DNA of 64,000 nucleotides from Janthinobacterium sp. CG3. Lineage in GTDB: Bacteria; Pseudomonadota; Gammaproteobacteria; Burkholderiales; Burkholderiaceae_D. Positions within the stretch are counted from its first letter, which is position 1. The number at the start of each line of letters is the position of its first letter. Made by a program: the position numbers and the translations under genes. The notes beneath the pieces are model-generated. The model was not told the DNA's origin, ran no database searches, and was given only the letters and a program-made list of their open reading frames with translations. Below are positions 52,280 to 59,142 of this stretch, one piece after another. The DNA is taken from assembly GCF_000344615.1 (NCBI RefSeq), contig NZ_KB467824.1, positions 418,445-482,444 of the forward strand. The letters run 5' to 3'.

Positions 52280-52372
52280 ATAAACTGTTTTTTTGCGGAA
52301 CTTTTTACCTGGGCCGTTGATCCAATCTCCTTAGAGCCGCTGGCAAGCTCGGCTGTAATCAAGGAGGTGAAC

Positions 52373-53242
52373 ATGACAGGCAGTTTTTCTTACCGCGACG
52401 CTTTCTCGCGCAACATCGGCTGGGTCACGCCGGCCGAGCAAGAGCAGTTGCGCCACAAGCGCGTCGCCATCGCCGGCATGGGCGGGGTCGGCGGGGTGCA
52501 CCTGCTGACCTTGGCCAGGCTCGGCATCGGCGCCTTCCACATCGCCGATTTCGACCATTTCGACATCGCCAACTTCAACCGCCAGGTCGGCGCGACGATG
52601 TCGACCCTGGGCCGGCCGAAGGTCGACGTGCTGGCCGAGATGGCCAGCGACATCAATCCCGAGATGGCGATCACGCGCTTTCCCGACGGCGTCAACGGCG
52701 CCAACCTGGAAGATTTTTTCGCCGGCGTCGACCTGTACGTCGACGGCCTGGATTTTTTCGCCTTCCGCGCCCGCCAGGCGACCTTCGCCATGTGCGCCCG
52801 GCTCGGCATTCCCGCGATCACGGCGGCGCCGCTGGGGATGGGCACGGCCTTGCTCAATTTCATGCCGGGCCGAATGACGTTCGAGCAATACTTCGGCTGG
52901 GGCGAGCTGCCCGACGCCGAGAAGGCGCTGCGCTTCCTGGTCGGCTTGGCGCCGGCGGGCCTGCACGGCGCCTACCTGGTCGACCCCTCGGCCATCAACC
53001 TGAAGGAGCAGCGCGGGCCGTCGACCATCATGGGGTGCCAGTTGTGCGCCGGCGCCGCCGCCACCGAGGCGCTGAAGATCCTGTTGCGACGAGGAAAAGT
53101 GCTTGCCGCGCCGCATGGCGTGCACTTCGATGCCTTCCGCAACAAGCTGGTGCGCACCTGGCGCCCGGGCGGCAACCGCCATCCGCTGCAGCGCCTGGCG
53201 ATGATGATAATCAAGCGCCGCAGAGCGGCGGAAAGGCCATGA
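52373..53242 (+). CDS. ThiF/E1-like adenylyltransferase
   Basis: 289 aa from the ATG at 52373, right after AAGGAGG. The nucleotide-binding loop GMGGVGG is at 35-41, D59 in HIADFDHFD, the Arg finger R70 (NFNRQ), K83 and D124 (VDGLD) follow; these are the ATP-handling residues of MoeB/ThiF. Only one CxxC (C222, C225) of the usual two is present. It should adenylate a carboxylate, either a C-terminal GG of a small carrier or a small molecule. It overlaps the nitroreductase gene by ATGA. The pair matches the two halves of the mycobacterial fusion protein MoeY. Confidence 0.85.
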   Translation: MTGSFSYRDAFSRNIGWVTPAEQEQLRHKRVAIAGMGGVGGVHLLTLARLGIGAFHIADFDHFDIANFNRQVGATMSTLGRPKVDVLAEMASDINPEMAITRFPDGVNGANLEDFFAGVDLYVDGLDFFAFRARQATFAMCARLGIPAITAAPLGMGTALLNFMPGRMTFEQYFGWGELPDAEKALRFLVGLAPAGLHGAYLVDPSAINLKEQRGPSTIMGCQLCAGAAATEALKILLRRGKVLAAPHGVHFDAFRNKLVRTWRPGGNRHPLQRLAMMIIKRRRAAERP

Positions 53243-54366
53243 CCATGCTGCTCGACGGCACCCTGGAACGCATCCTCGACCTGGCGCGCTGGGCGCCCAG
53301 CGGCGACAACACCCAACCCTGGCGCTTTGAAATCGTCGACGAGCGCCACATCGTCGTGCACGGCTTCGACACGCGCGCGCACTGCGTCTACGACCTCGAC
53401 GGCCACCCCAGCCAGATCTCGCTCGGCGCCTTGCTTGAGACCATGGCGATCGCCGCCAGCGGCTACGGCCTGCGGTTACGCGCCCAGCGGCGCGGCGGCG
53501 CCCCCGAGCACTTGCCGACCTTCGACGTCGCGTTCGAGGCCGCGCCGCGCCAGCCCGCCGATCCGCTGTCCGGCTACATCCAGCGCCGCAGCGTGCAGCG
53601 CCGGCCGCTGCGCACGCGCGCGCTGAGCGCGGTGGAAAAAAGCGCGCTGGCCGCCGCCTTGCCCGAGGGCTACCAGATCGTCTGGCTGGAGGGCTTCGGC
53701 AAGCGCCTGGCGGCGGCGCGGCTGATGTTTGCCAACGCCAAGCTGCGCCTGACCATGCCCGAGGCGCACCAGGTGCACCGCGCGGTGATCGAATGGAACG
53801 CCCGTTACAGCGAGGACCGCATTCCCGACCAGGCGCTGGGGGTCGATCCGATGACGAGCAAACTGATGCGTTGGATCATGCAGAGCTGGCGCCGGGTCGA
53901 ATTTTTCAACACCTTCCTGGCCGGCACGGTGGCGCCGCGCATCCAGATGGACTTGATTCCCGGCCTGGCCTGCGCCGCCCATTTCGCGCTGGTCGCCACC
54001 AAGCAGCCGCGCTCGATCGACGACTACGTGGCGGCGGGGCGGGCGATGCAGCGCTTCTGGCTGACCGCGACCCTGCTCGAACTGCAACTGCAACCGGAAC
54101 TGACGCCGCTGATCTTCGCGCGCTACGTGCGCGAGGGCAGGATGTTCTCGCGCGTGCCCGGCATGCAGGAACACGCCGGCGCGTTGGCCGCGCGCTGCGC
54201 CGCGCTCATCGGCGAGGACTGCGGCCAGCGCGCCGTGTTCATGGGACGCATCGGCGCGGGCGCCGCGGCGCGGGCGCGCTCGACGCGCCGGCCGCTCCAG
54301 GATTTGTTGGTACAGGGCGGGGGCAGGGGCGGGGGCGGAGCCGGTTCCGGCAGACGCCATGCGTGA
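53239..54366 (+). CDS. Nitroreductase family flavoprotein
   Basis: 375 aa. The FMN-binding start ILDLARWAPSGDNTQPWRFEIVDE (residues 12-35) is typical of the Acg/nitroreductase superfamily, and a further flavin-side motif lies in PGLACAAHFALVATKQPRS. It is longer than the usual 200-220 aa, with an extra helical insertion at about 150-240, as in the C-terminal half of MoeY. The last 40 residues are Arg/Gly-rich. It is coupled to the ThiF gene upstream and overlaps the acyltransferase gene by 8 bp, so the three work in one pathway, substrate unknown. Confidence 0.85.
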   Translation: MTMLLDGTLERILDLARWAPSGDNTQPWRFEIVDERHIVVHGFDTRAHCVYDLDGHPSQISLGALLETMAIAASGYGLRLRAQRRGGAPEHLPTFDVAFEAAPRQPADPLSGYIQRRSVQRRPLRTRALSAVEKSALAAALPEGYQIVWLEGFGKRLAAARLMFANAKLRLTMPEAHQVHRAVIEWNARYSEDRIPDQALGVDPMTSKLMRWIMQSWRRVEFFNTFLAGTVAPRIQMDLIPGLACAAHFALVATKQPRSIDDYVAAGRAMQRFWLTATLLELQLQPELTPLIFARYVREGRMFSRVPGMQEHAGALAARCAALIGEDCGQRAVFMGRIGAGAAARARSTRRPLQDLLVQGGGRGGGGAGSGRRHA

Positions 54367-55033
54367 GATCAAGGCAAGCCAGATCCTGTTTTTCCTGTTG
54401 CTGCTGGCGCTGGTGTTGGCGCTGGCGCTGGCCAGCACCGCGTGCTTGTTCGGCGACCTGCCGCTCGGCGACTTCCGGGGCGTGGCGCTGGTCGCCGCCG
54501 CCGTGCTGCTGAACTATCTGTACGCGTTTGCCGTCTACCGCTTGTTCCTGTGCTGGCTGCCGCTGTTGGACGGCGACGTGGCGCCGGACTCGCGCGCCGA
54601 GTTCATCGCCAACGTCAACATCCTGTTTTACCTGATATTGTTTAATTCGTTGATCCGCACCCATGCGCTGCCGGTGCCGCTGATGCGCCTGGTCTACCTG
54701 GCGCTCGGCGCCCGGCTGGGCGGCAACACCTACAGCGCCGGCGCGATCCTCGATCCGCCGCTGACGCGGATCGGCAAGAACACCATCATTGGCCACGACG
54801 CGGTGATCTTTGCGCATGTGATCGAGGGCGCGCGGCTGGAGTTGAAAACGGTACACATCGGCGACGGCGTGACGATCGGCGCGTCGGCGGTGGTGATGGC
54901 CGGCGTGCGCATCGGCGACGGCGCGATCGTCTCGGCCGGCGCCGTCGTCACCAAGGATAGCCAGATCGGTCCCGGCGAGGTGTGGGGCGGGATTCCGGCG
55001 CGCCTGCTGAAACGCGGCGGGCCGCCCGGCTGA
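54359..55033 (+). CDS. Membrane-anchored hexapeptide-repeat acyltransferase
   Basis: 224 aa. Residues 1-110 hold three or so membrane helices (ILFFLLLLALVLALALASTACLF; VALVAAAVLLNYLYAFAVYRLFLC; VNILFYLILFNSLI). Residues about 120-215 are a left-handed beta-helix (GARLGGNTYSAGAIL, RIGKNTIIGHDAVIFAHVI, VHIGDGVTIGASAVVMAGVRIGDGAIVSAGAVVTKDSQIGPGEVWGGIPARLLK), like sugar or amino acid acetyltransferases. It is the last gene of the ThiF-nitroreductase operon; probably a lipid-linked or membrane-presented product is acylated. Confidence 0.85.
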   Translation: MREIKASQILFFLLLLALVLALALASTACLFGDLPLGDFRGVALVAAAVLLNYLYAFAVYRLFLCWLPLLDGDVAPDSRAEFIANVNILFYLILFNSLIRTHALPVPLMRLVYLALGARLGGNTYSAGAILDPPLTRIGKNTIIGHDAVIFAHVIEGARLELKTVHIGDGVTIGASAVVMAGVRIGDGAIVSAGAVVTKDSQIGPGEVWGGIPARLLKRGGPPG

Positions 55034-55058: not shown

Positions 55059-56048
55059 CTATGCCGCCGGGCGCGCGCCGCGGCGGCCGCCGAGGCACAG
55101 GCCGGCCAGCCCCAGCCCCAGCAAGGCCAGCGTGCCCGGCTCCGGCACTTGCTGCGTGATGACCAGGTCGACGCTTTCTATCGTATTCAAGGTCAGCGTA
55201 TAGTTGCCGGCGCTTAAGGGAGTGGTCAGCGCGGCGAACGCGGCGCCGCAAGCGGTCGAGGTGCCGGTGCCGGTCGGTACGGGGCAGGGACTCGGGTTGA
55301 AGGTAAACGGCGTGCCCTTGGTCAGGGTACTGGTCGACAGGTTGGTGTTCAGGTTGGCCCCGTCGGCGCTCTCGGCGCCGCCGAAGATGCCCGAGCCGAG
55401 CACGCCATCCGGGGTCCAGTTGAAGACGTTGACCCCGGCCGCGTTGGTGATGCTGAACGACACCACCAGGTTGGCGGTCGCGGTGGAGCCGAGACCGGCC
55501 ATCGCGTCCAGAAACACCGCCATGTAGGGATCGGCACTGAAGTTGAAGGACAGCGTCGCGGTTGGCGAGGCAACCGAGAACAGCACGGAAAGACCGGTGG
55601 TGGAGCCGTTGCGCCCGGACGCGTCGGCGGTGCCGGCGCCCGCCAGGAAGGCTTCGGCGACGTTGGCCTTGTGGGTGCTGGTGGCGCCGGGCGGAAAGGG
55701 CCGGAATTGCGTGCTGATGATCTGGGCGTCGCCGCGCGAGTACGACGGGCCGCCCTGGCCTTGCGGAGTGAAATTGTTCTCGCCCTTGGTGACGGCGCCG
55801 AGCGCCGACTGCGGCGCGTCGAGGAAGCCGGCGCCGCCGCGGATGACGCTGGCGGCGCCCAGCGTCGCCGTCGAGCGCGAGACGGTGGTGACGCCGGCCA
55901 CGCTGACCACGCCGGTGGGATTGTTAATGATCAGGCCGAATACATTGTTGTAGGAGTAGCCGTAGGCGGCCGCGCTGGCGTTGCCGGTGGCGCACAGCAG
56001 GGCGATGGCGGCGGCGGCCGGGATCAGTTTCAGGGACGACAGTTTCAT
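55059..56048 (-). CDS. PEP-CTERM sorting domain protein, copy 1
   Basis: 329 aa. A signal peptide (to about residue 25) and a Ser/Thr/Asn/Gly-rich, beta-type body (SYNNVFGLIINNPTGVVSVAG; GNYTLTLNTIESVDLV) lead to the C-terminal sorting signal VPEPGTLALLGLGLAGLCLGG then RRG. The domain is recognised by exosortase for export and processing at the cell surface, commonly with exopolysaccharide. It is a paralogue of the protein at 56478. Confidence 0.9.
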   Translation of the reverse strand: MKLSSLKLIPAAAAIALLCATGNASAAAYGYSYNNVFGLIINNPTGVVSVAGVTTVSRSTATLGAASVIRGGAGFLDAPQSALGAVTKGENNFTPQGQGGPSYSRGDAQIISTQFRPFPPGATSTHKANVAEAFLAGAGTADASGRNGSTTGLSVLFSVASPTATLSFNFSADPYMAVFLDAMAGLGSTATANLVVSFSITNAAGVNVFNWTPDGVLGSGIFGGAESADGANLNTNLSTSTLTKGTPFTFNPSPCPVPTGTGTSTACGAAFAALTTPLSAGNYTLTLNTIESVDLVITQQVPEPGTLALLGLGLAGLCLGGRRGARPAA

Positions 56049-56477: not shown

Positions 56478-57449
56478 TTAGGCCTTGCGGCGCTTGCTGA
56501 CGCACAAGCCGGCCAGGCCCAGTCCCAGCAGGGCCAGCGTGCCAGGCTCCGGCACCGCCGTCTTGACCAGATCGACGCTTTCCACCGCGTTCAGGGTCAA
56601 GGTGTAGTTGCCCGCCTCCAAGGCGTTGGTCAGTGCCGTGTAGGCGCCGCCGCAACCGGTGCCGGTGCCTGGCGCCACCGGTACGGGGCAGCCCGTTGGA
56701 TTGTAGGTAAACAACGAGCCGCGGGTGAGGAAGTTGGTCGACAGATTGGTGTTCAGACTGGCCGCGTCGGCGGTTTCGACGCCGCCCGTGATGCCGGAGC
56801 CGACCACGCCGTCCGGCGCCCAGACGAAGATGATGGCGCCGGCGGCGTCGGTGATGGTGAAGGTCGCCACCAGGTTGGCGGCGGCCGACGAACCGGGGCC
56901 GGCCAGGGTTTGCAGGAATACCTGCATGAAGGGATCGGCCTGGAAGTTGAACCGCAGCGTCGCCGTTGGCGAGCCAACGACGAAATTGACGGAGAAACCG
57001 GTGGTCGAGCCGTTGCGGCCGGACGCGTCGGCCGTGCCGGCGAAGTCCAGGTGGGCCTCGGCCACGTTCACCGCCTGGGTGCTGGTGGCGCCGGGCGGGA
57101 AGGGCGGGAACTGCGTGCTGACGATCTGGGCATCGCCGCGCGAGTAGGTGCCGACCGGGCCTTGCTGCTGGAAATTGTTTTGGCCGAGCGCGACGGCGCC
57201 CACCGCGGCTTGCGGCGCGTCGAGCATGCCGGAGCCGCCGGTGATGACGCTGGTACCGTTCAGCGTCGCCGTGGCGCGGGAAATGTTGGTGGTGCCGGCA
57301 ACCGATACCACGCCGGTCGGATTGGTGACGGTCAGGCCGAAAATATTGTCGTAGGAGTAGCCATACGCGCCCGCACTGGCGCTGCCGGCCGCACTCATCA
57401 ACACCAGGGCGGCTGCCACCGGGATGAGTTTCAGTTTAAACAGTTTCAT
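56478..57449 (-). CDS. PEP-CTERM sorting domain protein, copy 2
   Basis: 323 aa, co-linear with the protein at 55059: the signal peptide (MKLFKLKLIPVAAALVLMSAAGSASA), then YGYSYDNIFGLTVTNPTGVVSVAG, QAAVGAVALGQNNF, YSRGDAQIVSTQFPPFPPGATST, SGRNGSTTGFSVNF, NYTLTLNAVESVDLV, and the sorting signal VPEPGTLALLGLGLAGLCVSKRR. Two copies in tandem suggest an expanded surface-protein family. Confidence 0.9.
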   Translation of the reverse strand: MKLFKLKLIPVAAALVLMSAAGSASAGAYGYSYDNIFGLTVTNPTGVVSVAGTTNISRATATLNGTSVITGGSGMLDAPQAAVGAVALGQNNFQQQGPVGTYSRGDAQIVSTQFPPFPPGATSTQAVNVAEAHLDFAGTADASGRNGSTTGFSVNFVVGSPTATLRFNFQADPFMQVFLQTLAGPGSSAAANLVATFTITDAAGAIIFVWAPDGVVGSGITGGVETADAASLNTNLSTNFLTRGSLFTYNPTGCPVPVAPGTGTGCGGAYTALTNALEAGNYTLTLNAVESVDLVKTAVPEPGTLALLGLGLAGLCVSKRRKA

Positions 57450-57933: not shown

Positions 57934-59142
57934 TCATCTGGCGGCCGGCAGCGTATCGAGCAGCGCCGTCAGGCGCGTGCCGGGCTGGTAGGCGCGAAAC
58001 TGGCGCGCGACGGTCTTGGCCGCCGCCGCCGCGCCGGCGTCGTTCAGCATGGCCTCGGCGCAGCCGCGTAGCGCCCGCTCGCTGAAACGGTCGGCGCGCA
58101 GCAGCGTGCCGGCGCCGGCGGCGACGACGCCATGCATGTTCAGGAACTGGTCCAGATTGCTGGCGATGCCGATCACCGGCACGCCGGCGGCCAGCGCCTG
58201 CTGGCTGGTCGGGCTGCCGCCGTTGCATAGCACCAGGCGGGCGCGGCCGGCCGCTTCGGCGCCGGGCAGGAACGGCGCGACGAAGGCGTTGGCGGGGATG
58301 TTGTCGAGTTCGATATTGCCGGCCGTCGCGGCCAGCACCGTGACCGGCAGCGGCGCCAGCGCGCGCAGCACTTGTGGCAGCAGCTGGCCCTGGCCGGAAC
58401 TGCCCAAGGTCACGTACAGCACCGGCTTGTCTTGCGGCAGGTCGTTCCACCACTCCGGCGTCGACAGCGGCGGCGACCAGATTACCGCTCCCAAATAGGA
58501 GTGGCTGGCGGGCAGCCCGCGCGCGGGAAACAGCTCGGGGATGTCGGCGTAAACGGTATGGTCGGCGTCGGTATAGACCCGGCGCAGATCGGGGCCCAGC
58601 GAGGCCAGTCCGTGTCGACGCCGCAGCCGGTTCAGCGGCACGGTGTGGCTGGCGAAGGCCAGCGGGCGCACCATGCGAAACAGTGCGTTGGCCAAGGGGA
58701 TCGGCAAGGCTTTGGTCAGCGGAAGATTGGGTACTTCGTAGTGCTGCCGCACGTACGGACTCCAGTAGGCGTTGCTCAGCGCCACGTAGGGCAGCCTGGC
58801 CAGACGCGCGCTGACCGACAGCGACAGTCGAAAGTCGCCCAGCACCACGTCCGGCCGCACCTCCTTGAGTAGTCGCAGGTCGTCGTCGACGTACTGCGAC
58901 AGCGTCGCTTCACTGTAGACGGGTTTGCCTTTCGCCAAAGCCTGCAGGAACTGGGCGCTGGAAATACTGTCGATGCGCCAACGCGTGAAGCCGCTGTCCT
59001 TGAAACAAAAGTCGTACCCGTCGGCGCAGGCGAAATGGATGTCGAAACGCTGCGGATCGAGCATGTGCGCCAGGGCGAGCGGCCTGCCGACATGCGCCAG
59101 CGTAACCGCCTCGGCAACAAAAAGAATCCTCTTTCGCTCCAT
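57934..59142 (-). CDS. MGT-type glycosyltransferase
   Basis: 402 aa from the ATG at 59142, after GGAGG; the longer open frame to 59349 is not protein-like. The GT-B N-terminal half starts MERKRILFVAEAVTLAHVGRPLALAHML, and the UDP-sugar-binding half has VLYVTLGSSGQGQLLPQVL and LVLCNGGSPTSQQALAAGVPVIGIASNLDQFLNM. The usual H of the HGGxGT motif is N here, as in a subset of these enzymes. It probably transfers a sugar to a lipid or small molecule. No biosynthetic partner is beside it. Confidence 0.87.
   Translation of the reverse strand: MERKRILFVAEAVTLAHVGRPLALAHMLDPQRFDIHFACADGYDFCFKDSGFTRWRIDSISSAQFLQALAKGKPVYSEATLSQYVDDDLRLLKEVRPDVVLGDFRLSLSVSARLARLPYVALSNAYWSPYVRQHYEVPNLPLTKALPIPLANALFRMVRPLAFASHTVPLNRLRRRHGLASLGPDLRRVYTDADHTVYADIPELFPARGLPASHSYLGAVIWSPPLSTPEWWNDLPQDKPVLYVTLGSSGQGQLLPQVLRALAPLPVTVLAATAGNIELDNIPANAFVAPFLPGAEAAGRARLVLCNGGSPTSQQALAAGVPVIGIASNLDQFLNMHGVVAAGAGTLLRADRFSERALRGCAEAMLNDAGAAAAAKTVARQFRAYQPGTRLTALLDTLPAAR

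What the first reader, a model, noticed from the sequence alone, without database searches (positions are those of the whole stretch)
52373..55033. Undescribed pathway: ThiF E1 enzyme, nitroreductase and membrane acyltransferase
Three genes overlap (ATGA, 8 bp), so they are co-translated. The first two match the halves of mycobacterial MoeY, which is a single fused protein of unknown function. No ubiquitin-like carrier (ThiS/MoaD) or cysteine desulfurase is close by, so the E1 enzyme may adenylate a small molecule. A membrane hexapeptide acyltransferase is added. A flavin-dependent oxidation with adenylation and acylation suggests a natural product, perhaps amino acid- or lipid-derived.
Basis: partly seen in the sequence, partly recalled or inferred. 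Interest (0 to 1): 0.7.

Follow-up and report, generated by a model that had tools for sequence, protein, structure and literature searches.

The report
Split oxazolone-lipid operon with tailoring genes
The gene pair is the bacterial version of a known enzyme duo that rings and desaturates fatty-acylated amino acids, and in this group of bacteria it travels with a sugar-transferring enzyme, a membrane acyltransferase and surface proteins not yet connected to this chemistry in the papers I could search.

Summary
The three overlapping genes are real. The first two look like a split oxazolone (azlactone) synthetase: a ThiF-type cyclase with all checked nucleotide-site residues intact, and a flavin-dependent desaturase of the nitroreductase superfamily. 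The N-acyl amino acid synthase is not the third gene: a FeeM-type synthase lies 0.81 Mb away beside exopolysaccharide-type genes, and 50 of 51 relatives with this ThiF carry a FeeM homologue. What I found no report of is a tailoring module: a natural-product-type GT-B glycosyltransferase (57934-59142) and the membrane hexapeptide acyltransferase. In 369 class-wide genomes the glycosyltransferase occurs in 10, 9 of them ThiF-positive (31 of 359 others; Fisher 8e-9; on one contig in 3 of the 9), and the acyltransferase in 8, 7 of them glycosyltransferase-positive (5e-12). PEP-CTERM surface-protein genes sit between or beside them. Best reading: an N-acyl dehydrotyrosine/oxazolone lipid, probably glycosylated and O-acylated in some species, linked to the exosortase matrix. 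Core assignment strong; tailoring, sugar, acyl group and biology are inferred.

The parts
52361..52372 (+). Shine-Dalgarno-like sequence AAGGAGGTGAAC directly before the ThiF start
   Evidence: one exact match in the window, 0 in 100 shuffles
52373..53242 (+). ThiF/E1-like cyclase (NF006077 PRK08223, 456.6 bits, cut-off 266), counterpart of TyzB and of the ThiF half of OxzB/TrzS
   Evidence: glycine-rich loop, D61, R70, K83 and D127 invariant in 12 sequences
53239..54366 (+). Flavin-dependent oxidase/desaturase of the nitroreductase superfamily (PF00881; second half of Rv1355c and PRK14851), counterpart of TyzC
   Evidence: R17-W-A-P-S-G-D-N24, Q26, W28 invariant in 12 sequences
54359..55033 (+). 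Membrane left-handed beta-helix (hexapeptide) O-acyltransferase; N-terminal hydrophobic helices, then the LbH domain; H146 and H153 invariant in 16 sequences
   Evidence: present in 12 of 100 relatives and 8 of 369 class genomes
55059..56048 (-). EDSAP-1 family PEP-CTERM surface protein (NF041538, 220.9 bits, cut-off 100)
56478..57449 (-). EDSAP-1 family PEP-CTERM surface protein (NF041538, 255.6 bits, cut-off 100)
57934..59142 (-). GT-B glycosyltransferase of the natural-product type (EryCIII-like C-terminal domain; nearest solved structure CalG1), conserved partner of the ThiF-NTR pair; start codon chosen by me within a longer frame

Best explanation
The operon encodes a split oxazolone synthetase plus a tailoring enzyme. 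A FeeM-type synthase encoded elsewhere, beside exosortase/exopolysaccharide-type genes, joins a fatty acyl chain to an aromatic amino acid, probably tyrosine (inferred). ThiF adenylates the carboxylate of the N-acyl amino acid and closes the 5-oxazolone ring (inferred from TyzB/TrzS). The nitroreductase-type flavoenzyme desaturates the alpha-beta bond with O2 (inferred from TyzC/TrzS). The result is an N-acyl tyrazolone or, after ring opening, an N-acyl 2,3-dehydrotyrosine like the kyonggic acids of Massilia. In this lineage the glycosyltransferase at 57934-59142 probably glycosylates the product, perhaps on the phenol, and the membrane hexapeptide enzyme acylates an OH, perhaps of the sugar. 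Recurrent PEP-CTERM neighbours tie the product to the exosortase/exopolysaccharide matrix. Shown: gene content, conserved residues, co-occurrence and linkage. Not shown: any product, substrate or order of steps.
For: Family matches and published enzymes of the same pairing (PMC10404671, PMC12856293, PMC12479983). Own-genome FeeM hit at 185 bits, matching the solved FeeM 2g0b. Among 100 relatives 50 of 51 ThiF-positive genomes carry this synthase versus 3 of 49 ThiF-negative ones; outside the genus 13 of 13 versus 3 of 47 (Fisher 1e-10). NAS-ThiF-NTR-GT on one strand in seven loci named Massilia or Telluria (L067, L069, L072, L074-L077), in L042, and with ThiF-NTR fused in L041. GT: 31 of 100 relatives have a hit below 1e-100, all ThiF- and NTR-positive, in 30 of 31 within about 6 kb of NTR (G024 is split over contigs). 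GT loci sought without reference to ThiF: NTR within the held flank in 54 of 58, ThiF in 51 of 58. Class-wide: GT in 10 of 369, 9 of 10 with ThiF; acyltransferase in 8 of 369, 7 of 8 with GT. GT model (pLDDT 91.8) is nearest to small-molecule glycosyltransferases.
Against: In this genome the synthase is 0.81 Mb away, so the pathway is not one operon. The GT is absent (no hit below 1e-100) from 11 of the 38 ThiF-positive genomes of the genus, so tailoring is not obligatory. In the class sample GT and ThiF are on one contig in only 3 of 9 genomes (own, G120, G341); in five the drafts leave linkage open (G169, G180, G299, G409, G413) and in G376 they lie on two large contigs. One GT genome (G385, 85% complete) has no ThiF match, and two distant GT loci (L109, L114) show none of the partners in their held flanks. 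In G091 the GT and a good NTR have no ThiF beside them, only a divergent one (42%) about 8 kb off. The GT-PEP-CTERM linkage is as tight as the GT-ThiF one, so the GT might serve the surface protein. Sequence cannot tell oxazolone from ring-opened acid; no acyl-oxazolone was observed in the kyonggic acid, thalassotalic acid or stieleriacine families (PMC12479983, section 6). Most linkage counts come from one bacterial family.
Confidence: 0.72

Rival explanations
1. The ThiF-NTR pair makes an untailored oxazolone or N-acyl dehydrotyrosine, and the GT and the hexapeptide acyltransferase belong to a separate PEP-CTERM protein or exopolysaccharide module that is merely a neighbour. The GT would glycosylate the surface protein or a carrier lipid.
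For: 52 of 58 GT loci have a PEP-CTERM ORF within 5 kb, 69 such ORFs in all, against 0 in the 247,730 bases held upstream beyond 5 kb. GT-acyltransferase-PEP-CTERM occurs without ThiF nearby in G376 and G385. In the class sample GT and ThiF share a contig in only 3 of 9 genomes, whereas acyltransferase and GT lie within 3 kb in 6 of 7. In 8 of 10 GT-lacking Janthinobacterium loci the pattern found a PEP-CTERM ORF beside ThiF-NTR too.
Against: Nine of 10 class-wide GT genomes carry ThiF. The GT follows NTR on the same strand within 150 bases in 9 of 58 loci and converges on it within 65 bases in 2 more. Its listed structural matches are small-molecule glycosyltransferases.
Confidence: 0.27
2. 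Sulfur-carrier or ubiquitin-like E1: the ThiF protein activates a small carrier protein (MoaD/ThiS type) or a ubiquitin-like defence protein.
For: E1 fold and motifs; weaker similarity to ThiF, MoeB, Cap2 and E1-E2 models.
Against: Scores for MoeB, ThiF and TcdA models are far below cut-off, and the genome has two other ThiF-fold proteins that match MoeB (307 bits, cut-off 266) and TcdA (288 bits, just under its cut-off of 304). The 289-aa protein aligns only to the E1 part of E1-E2 models. The conserved partner is a flavin desaturase, not a carrier.
Confidence: 0.03
3. A TOMM/azoline-type peptide maturation system, in which an E1-like protein and a nitroreductase-type dehydrogenase modify a ribosomal peptide.
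For: Such systems also pair an E1-like protein with a nitroreductase-superfamily dehydrogenase (recalled).
Against: The ThiF and NTR match the Rv1355c/PRK14851/PRK08223 group and co-occur with FeeM synthases. I recognised no YcaO-like gene among the neighbouring ORFs, but made no search for YcaO or for precursor peptides.
Confidence: 0.02

Closest known systems
OxzAB of Pseudoalteromonas rubra (oxazolone synthetase; de Rond et al. 2021, not held, title recalled, known here through passages of PMC12856293)
   Same: ThiF-like cyclase and flavin oxidase with an N-acyltransferase; fused forms occur in relatives here (G049, G090, G341 and others)
   Different: Here cyclase and oxidase are two overlapping genes, the synthase is unlinked, and a glycosyltransferase and a membrane acyltransferase are near
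TyzABC and TrzAS of Mycobacterium tuberculosis (PMC10404671, PMC12856293)
   Different: A FeeM-type synthase here. 'glycosyl' occurs in neither paper; 'hexapeptide' does not occur in PMC12856293 and was not looked for in the other
Kyonggic acid, thalassotalic acid and stieleriacine clusters (PMC12479983)
   Same: NAS + ThiF + nitroreductase; Massilia is a close relative, and seven Massilia/Telluria loci seen here are NAS-ThiF-NTR-GT
   Different: The terms glycosyl, hexapeptide, acetyltransferase, exosortase, PEP-CTERM and Janthinobacterium do not occur in its main text
FeeM-type N-acyl amino acid synthases linked to PEP-CTERM/exosortase (Craig et al. 2011, not held; cited in PMC7293339 and PMC11072679)
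   Same: The synthase of this genome lies among exosortase/EPS-type genes (TPR protein, chain-length determinant, export protein, by eye)
   Different: The link as cited is of the synthase; here the modifying enzymes also sit with PEP-CTERM genes, away from that locus

Membership tests
Oxazolone / N-acyl dehydroamino acid pathway (Oxz, Tyz, Trz, kyonggic acid type) | ThiF-like cyclase of the PRK08223/PRK14851/Rv1355c group with intact ATP site | tested here: met
   NF006077 456.6 bits; GxGGxG, D61, R70, K83, D127 invariant in 12. Their catalytic roles are recalled
Oxazolone / N-acyl dehydroamino acid pathway (Oxz, Tyz, Trz, kyonggic acid type) | Flavin-dependent oxidase of the nitroreductase superfamily adjacent or fused | tested here: met
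   ATGA overlap; second halves of PRK07877 and PRK14851; on the same contig in 48 of 51 ThiF-positive relatives, 3 of these weak; fused in G049, G090
Oxazolone / N-acyl dehydroamino acid pathway (Oxz, Tyz, Trz, kyonggic acid type) | N-acyl amino acid synthase in the genome | tested here: met
   PF21926 FeeM 185 bits at G000:C1:1281272; 50 of 51 ThiF-positive relatives
Oxazolone / N-acyl dehydroamino acid pathway (Oxz, Tyz, Trz, kyonggic acid type) | Synthase gene adjacent to ThiF-NTR | tested here: not met
   0.81 Mb apart in this genome; adjacent in Massilia-type loci and in several other genera. An arrangement, not a chemical feature
Oxazolone / N-acyl dehydroamino acid pathway (Oxz, Tyz, Trz, kyonggic acid type) | Product is an oxazolone or N-acyl dehydroamino acid | not testable with these tools
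   needs mass spectrometry
MoeB/ThiF sulfur-carrier E1 | Scores above the curated MoeB or ThiF cut-off | tested here: not met
   TIGR02356 87 of 275 bits, PRK05690 81.5 of 266
Bacterial ubiquitin-like E1 defence (Cap2, BubCD, E1-E2) | E1 joined to or beside an E2-like domain and a ubiquitin-like protein | tested here: not met
   289-aa protein covers only the E1 part of PADLOC E1-E2 models (best 52 bits), NTR and acyltransferase match no PADLOC model; neighbours typed are other families. No search for a small ubiquitin-like gene was made
GT-B (GT1-like) small-molecule glycosyltransferase | GT-B fold with a natural-product GT C-terminal domain | tested here: met
   PF06722 38.8 bits over cut-off 31.7; Foldseek CalG1 E 1.6e-24; the macrolide subfamily TIGR01426 cut-off is not reached (67 of 260)
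Azoline/TOMM maturation | YcaO protein and precursor peptide | not tested
   no genome search for YcaO was made

The most novel reading that the evidence does not exclude
These bacteria make a glycosylated and O-acylated N-acyl dehydrotyrosine (or tyrazolone) lipid, a product class I did not find reported in the papers searched, built by NAS-ThiF-NTR-GT-LbH and deposited in the PEP-CTERM/exosortase matrix. The boldest form: the oxazolone is an activated electrophile that couples the lipid to a matrix component or to the PEP-CTERM proteins encoded beside it.
Probability: 0.3. Interest if true: 0.75.

Novelty: new variant of a known kind. Interest (0 to 1): 0.5.

Why it matters
It moves a gene pair annotated as hypothetical or molybdopterin-like into a named chemistry and predicts concrete masses to look for. 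The glycosyltransferase and acyltransferase point to unreported glycolipid forms of oxazolone/dehydrotyrosine lipids in Janthinobacterium, Duganella, Rugamonas and Massilia. The repeated PEP-CTERM neighbours bear on the open question of why N-acyl amino acid synthases sit with the exosortase system.

Tried and rejected
A MoeB/ThiF sulfur-transfer role was rejected on family scores and because separate genes match MoeB and TcdA. A defence role was considered and rejected. The idea that the third gene is the amide-forming acyltransferase was rejected: FeeM is elsewhere, and of the 51 ThiF-positive relatives only 11 have the third gene anywhere. Two further FeeM-like hits of the own genome were set aside: L056:10935-11702 is mainly Acetyltransf_5 (119.9 bits versus 27.1 for FeeM); the one at 809804 (37.9 bits) was fetched (L055) but not examined. 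The LysR and LysE genes upstream were typed but not taken as parts: in seven sibling loci a chemotaxis-receptor-like ORF (by eye) lies upstream of ThiF instead. Promoter and terminator scan: 0 promoter-like sites, and terminator-like sites no more than in shuffles. The solved Acg structure was too weak a match to use (E 0.0054). The TIGR03694 search of the own genome gave only sub-cut-off hits.

Limits: the PEP-CTERM count uses a pattern of my own, checked on the two window proteins; it missed a PEL variant in L033 and can miss others. Its background covers only sequence upstream of the GT beyond 5 kb. Fisher tests treat genomes as independent, which they are not; the class sample has 7 GT-positive families, 6 with ThiF. 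Of the 51 ThiF-positive relatives I fetched wider flanks for 33 (own window, 20, 12); of the 40 class-wide ThiF-positive genomes I fetched stretches for 9 besides G385 (8 plus own), chosen because they have the GT. The value printed for G000 in the gap list is not meaningful (wrong ends entered); the own overlap is read. One search's heading 'same-strand' for 11 loci was not tested in the script, 9 are same-strand and L102 and L107 are convergent.
Full report
OBSERVATION. The ORFs are as described: ThiF 52373-53242, nitroreductase-like 53239-54366 (ATGA overlap), hexapeptide acyltransferase 54359-55033 (8-base overlap). A strong ribosome-binding-like sequence precedes ThiF. Pairwise comparison with two Janthinobacterium loci gives dN 0.06-0.19 against dS 0.33-0.76 (ThiF, NTR and GT with both, acyltransferase with one), so all four are under purifying selection. 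The window belongs to the Janthinobacterium group: genome G023, same genus by kinship, has a contig of the same length (1,335,786 bases) as the named J. fluminis record.

WHAT THE FIRST TWO GENES ARE. ThiF scores 456.6 bits for NF006077 (cut-off 266) and matches the ThiF parts of PRK14851 and PRK14852; NTR matches the second half of PRK07877 (Rv1355c) and of PRK14851. The glycine-rich loop, D61, R70, K83 and D127 of ThiF are invariant in 12 sequences down to 42% identity; the aligned residues are shared with E. coli ThiF (their roles are recalled). The NTR keeps RWAPSGDN, Q26 and W28 invariant in 12. Published enzymes with this pairing convert N-acyl amino acids into oxazolones: TyzA acylates Tyr/Phe, TyzC desaturates with O2, TyzB cyclises with ATP (PMC10404671, abstract and section 5); TrzS is Rv1355c (PMC12856293, passages). 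In Massilia kyonggiensis, NAS, ThiF and nitroreductase genes are proposed for kyonggic acids (PMC12479983, abstract and sections 4 and 6).

CO-OCCURRENCE OF THE PAIR. In 100 relatives ThiF occurs in 51 and NTR in 48, all 48 on the ThiF contig; three of these NTRs are only 25-27% identical.

THE MISSING SYNTHASE. The own genome has three FeeM matches over the cut-off, one of them strong (185 bits, C1:1281272; the others 37.9 and 27). The strong one is related to the solved FeeM. By eye its neighbours look like an exosortase/exopolysaccharide locus (TPR protein, chain-length determinant, export lipoprotein). In 100 relatives the synthase occurs in 53; 50 of 51 ThiF-positive genomes have it (G030 lacks it) against 3 of 49 others; outside the genus 13 of 13 against 3 of 47. 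Within the genus the synthase lies beside ThiF only in the divergent G001 and, as a second copy beside a second ThiF, in G034; in most of the 13 other ThiF-positive genomes it is beside or within a few kb.

THE TAILORING MODULE. The gene at 57934-59142 is a GT-B glycosyltransferase, modelled at pLDDT 91.8, nearest to CalG1 and other small-molecule glycosyltransferases. In 100 relatives 33 have a hit; 31 are below 1e-100 (27 in the genus, plus G072, G086, G090, G091), all ThiF- and NTR-positive, and in 30 of 31 the GT is within about 6 kb of NTR. Eleven of 38 ThiF-positive genomes of the genus lack it. A search of named genomes with the GT alone returned 58 loci; NTR lies in the held flank in 54, ThiF in 51, the acyltransferase in 28, the synthase in 11. 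Seven Massilia/Telluria loci have NAS-ThiF-NTR-GT on one strand. In 369 class-wide genomes GT occurs in 10 and ThiF in 40; 9 of 10 GT genomes have ThiF, 31 of 359 others do, but the two share a contig in only 3 of the 9 (own, G120, G341). The acyltransferase occurs in 8 of 369; 7 are GT-positive (the eighth, G165, 31% identical, is ThiF-positive), and in 6 of these 7, own included, it lies within 3 kb of the GT; in G413 it is near ThiF instead. Its model has N-terminal hydrophobic helices and a beta-helix domain; the best matches are sugar O-acetyltransferases, with modest TM-scores.

PEP-CTERM NEIGHBOURS. Two EDSAP-1 family proteins lie between the acyltransferase and the GT. The genome has 35 PEP-CTERM matches in 6.27 Mb. 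Around the 58 GTs, 52 loci have a PEP-CTERM ORF within 5 kb, 69 ORFs in all, none in 247,730 bases held upstream beyond 5 kb. In 10 of the 11 GT-lacking genomes of the genus I tested the locus with the pattern; 8 of 10 have a PEP-CTERM ORF next to ThiF-NTR, typed in one of them as PepA; L033 has a PEL variant, L029 gave none, and the eleventh (G001, L047, not in that script) shows a VPEP-ending ORF between ThiF and NTR. PepA overexpression rescues flocculation in an Aquincola mutant (PMC9850573, passages); a PEP-CTERM gene is also in a stieleriacine cluster (PMC7293339, passages); an exosortase-linked NAS was one of three genes disrupted in a methanotroph polysaccharide study (PMC11072679, passages).

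NOVELTY. The core is known. 'glycosyl' does not occur in the three core papers. Searches for the GT link listed no paper that, from title and abstract start, describes it (only the first 20, 20 and 10 entries were shown); the library lacks most subscription journals, and de Rond 2021, Craig 2011 and Steinmetz 2024 were not read.

VERDICT. A split oxazolone/N-acyl dehydroamino acid synthetase with a co-occurring tailoring module: new variant of a known kind.

Noticed in passing
L108 12593-13618, L111 12365-13396, L117 14277-15347; L082 2106-5100: Three GT loci (two Rugamonas, one Duganella) keep NTR but show no ThiF in the held flank; L082 keeps GT, PEP-CTERM and acyltransferase but neither ThiF nor NTR. 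Natural variants that could separate cyclisation from desaturation.
   Followed up: partly
L039 14069-17584 (G091): Synthase-NTR-GT in a row without ThiF; a divergent ThiF (42%) with its own weak NTR lies about 8 kb away.
   Followed up: no
L144 5558-11326 (G341): Fused ThiF-NTR, then a 776-aa MMPL-like exporter (by eye), then GT, with a TIGR03694 exosortase acyltransferase (281 bits) upstream. Recalls the mmpL9 gene near tyz.
   Followed up: no
L142 9370-14432, L143 9082-14141: Between GT and the acyltransferase lie a GMC-like oxidoreductase (545-597 aa) and a short-chain dehydrogenase, then a second acyltransferase copy (assignments by eye).
   Followed up: no
L040, L042, L145, L146, L150, L152, L153: MacB/FtsX-like permease genes and ABC ATPases recur near ThiF-NTR or GT in other families, suggesting export (by eye).
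   Followed up: no
window 57934-59142, residues 307-310 of the protein: The C-terminal-domain motif reads N-G-G-S, invariant in 17 sequences, where related glycosyltransferases usually have His first (recalled). Could mark a distinct donor or mechanism.
   Followed up: no
L054 9117-9860 and NF011425: The own synthase matches positions 99-213 of PRK14852 (46 bits) and the ThiF matches 314-586, so the uncharacterised PRK14852 looks like a synthase-ThiF-NTR triple fusion.
   Followed up: no
L154-L161, L033, L047: Genus-mates without the GT mostly carry another PEP-CTERM gene beside ThiF-NTR (277 aa and PepA type in L154); in L033 its motif reads PEL.
   Followed up: partly
L056 10935-11702 (about 6 kb beyond the window end): A GNAT acyltransferase (Acetyltransf_5, 119.9 bits) with only borderline FeeM similarity.
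   Followed up: partly
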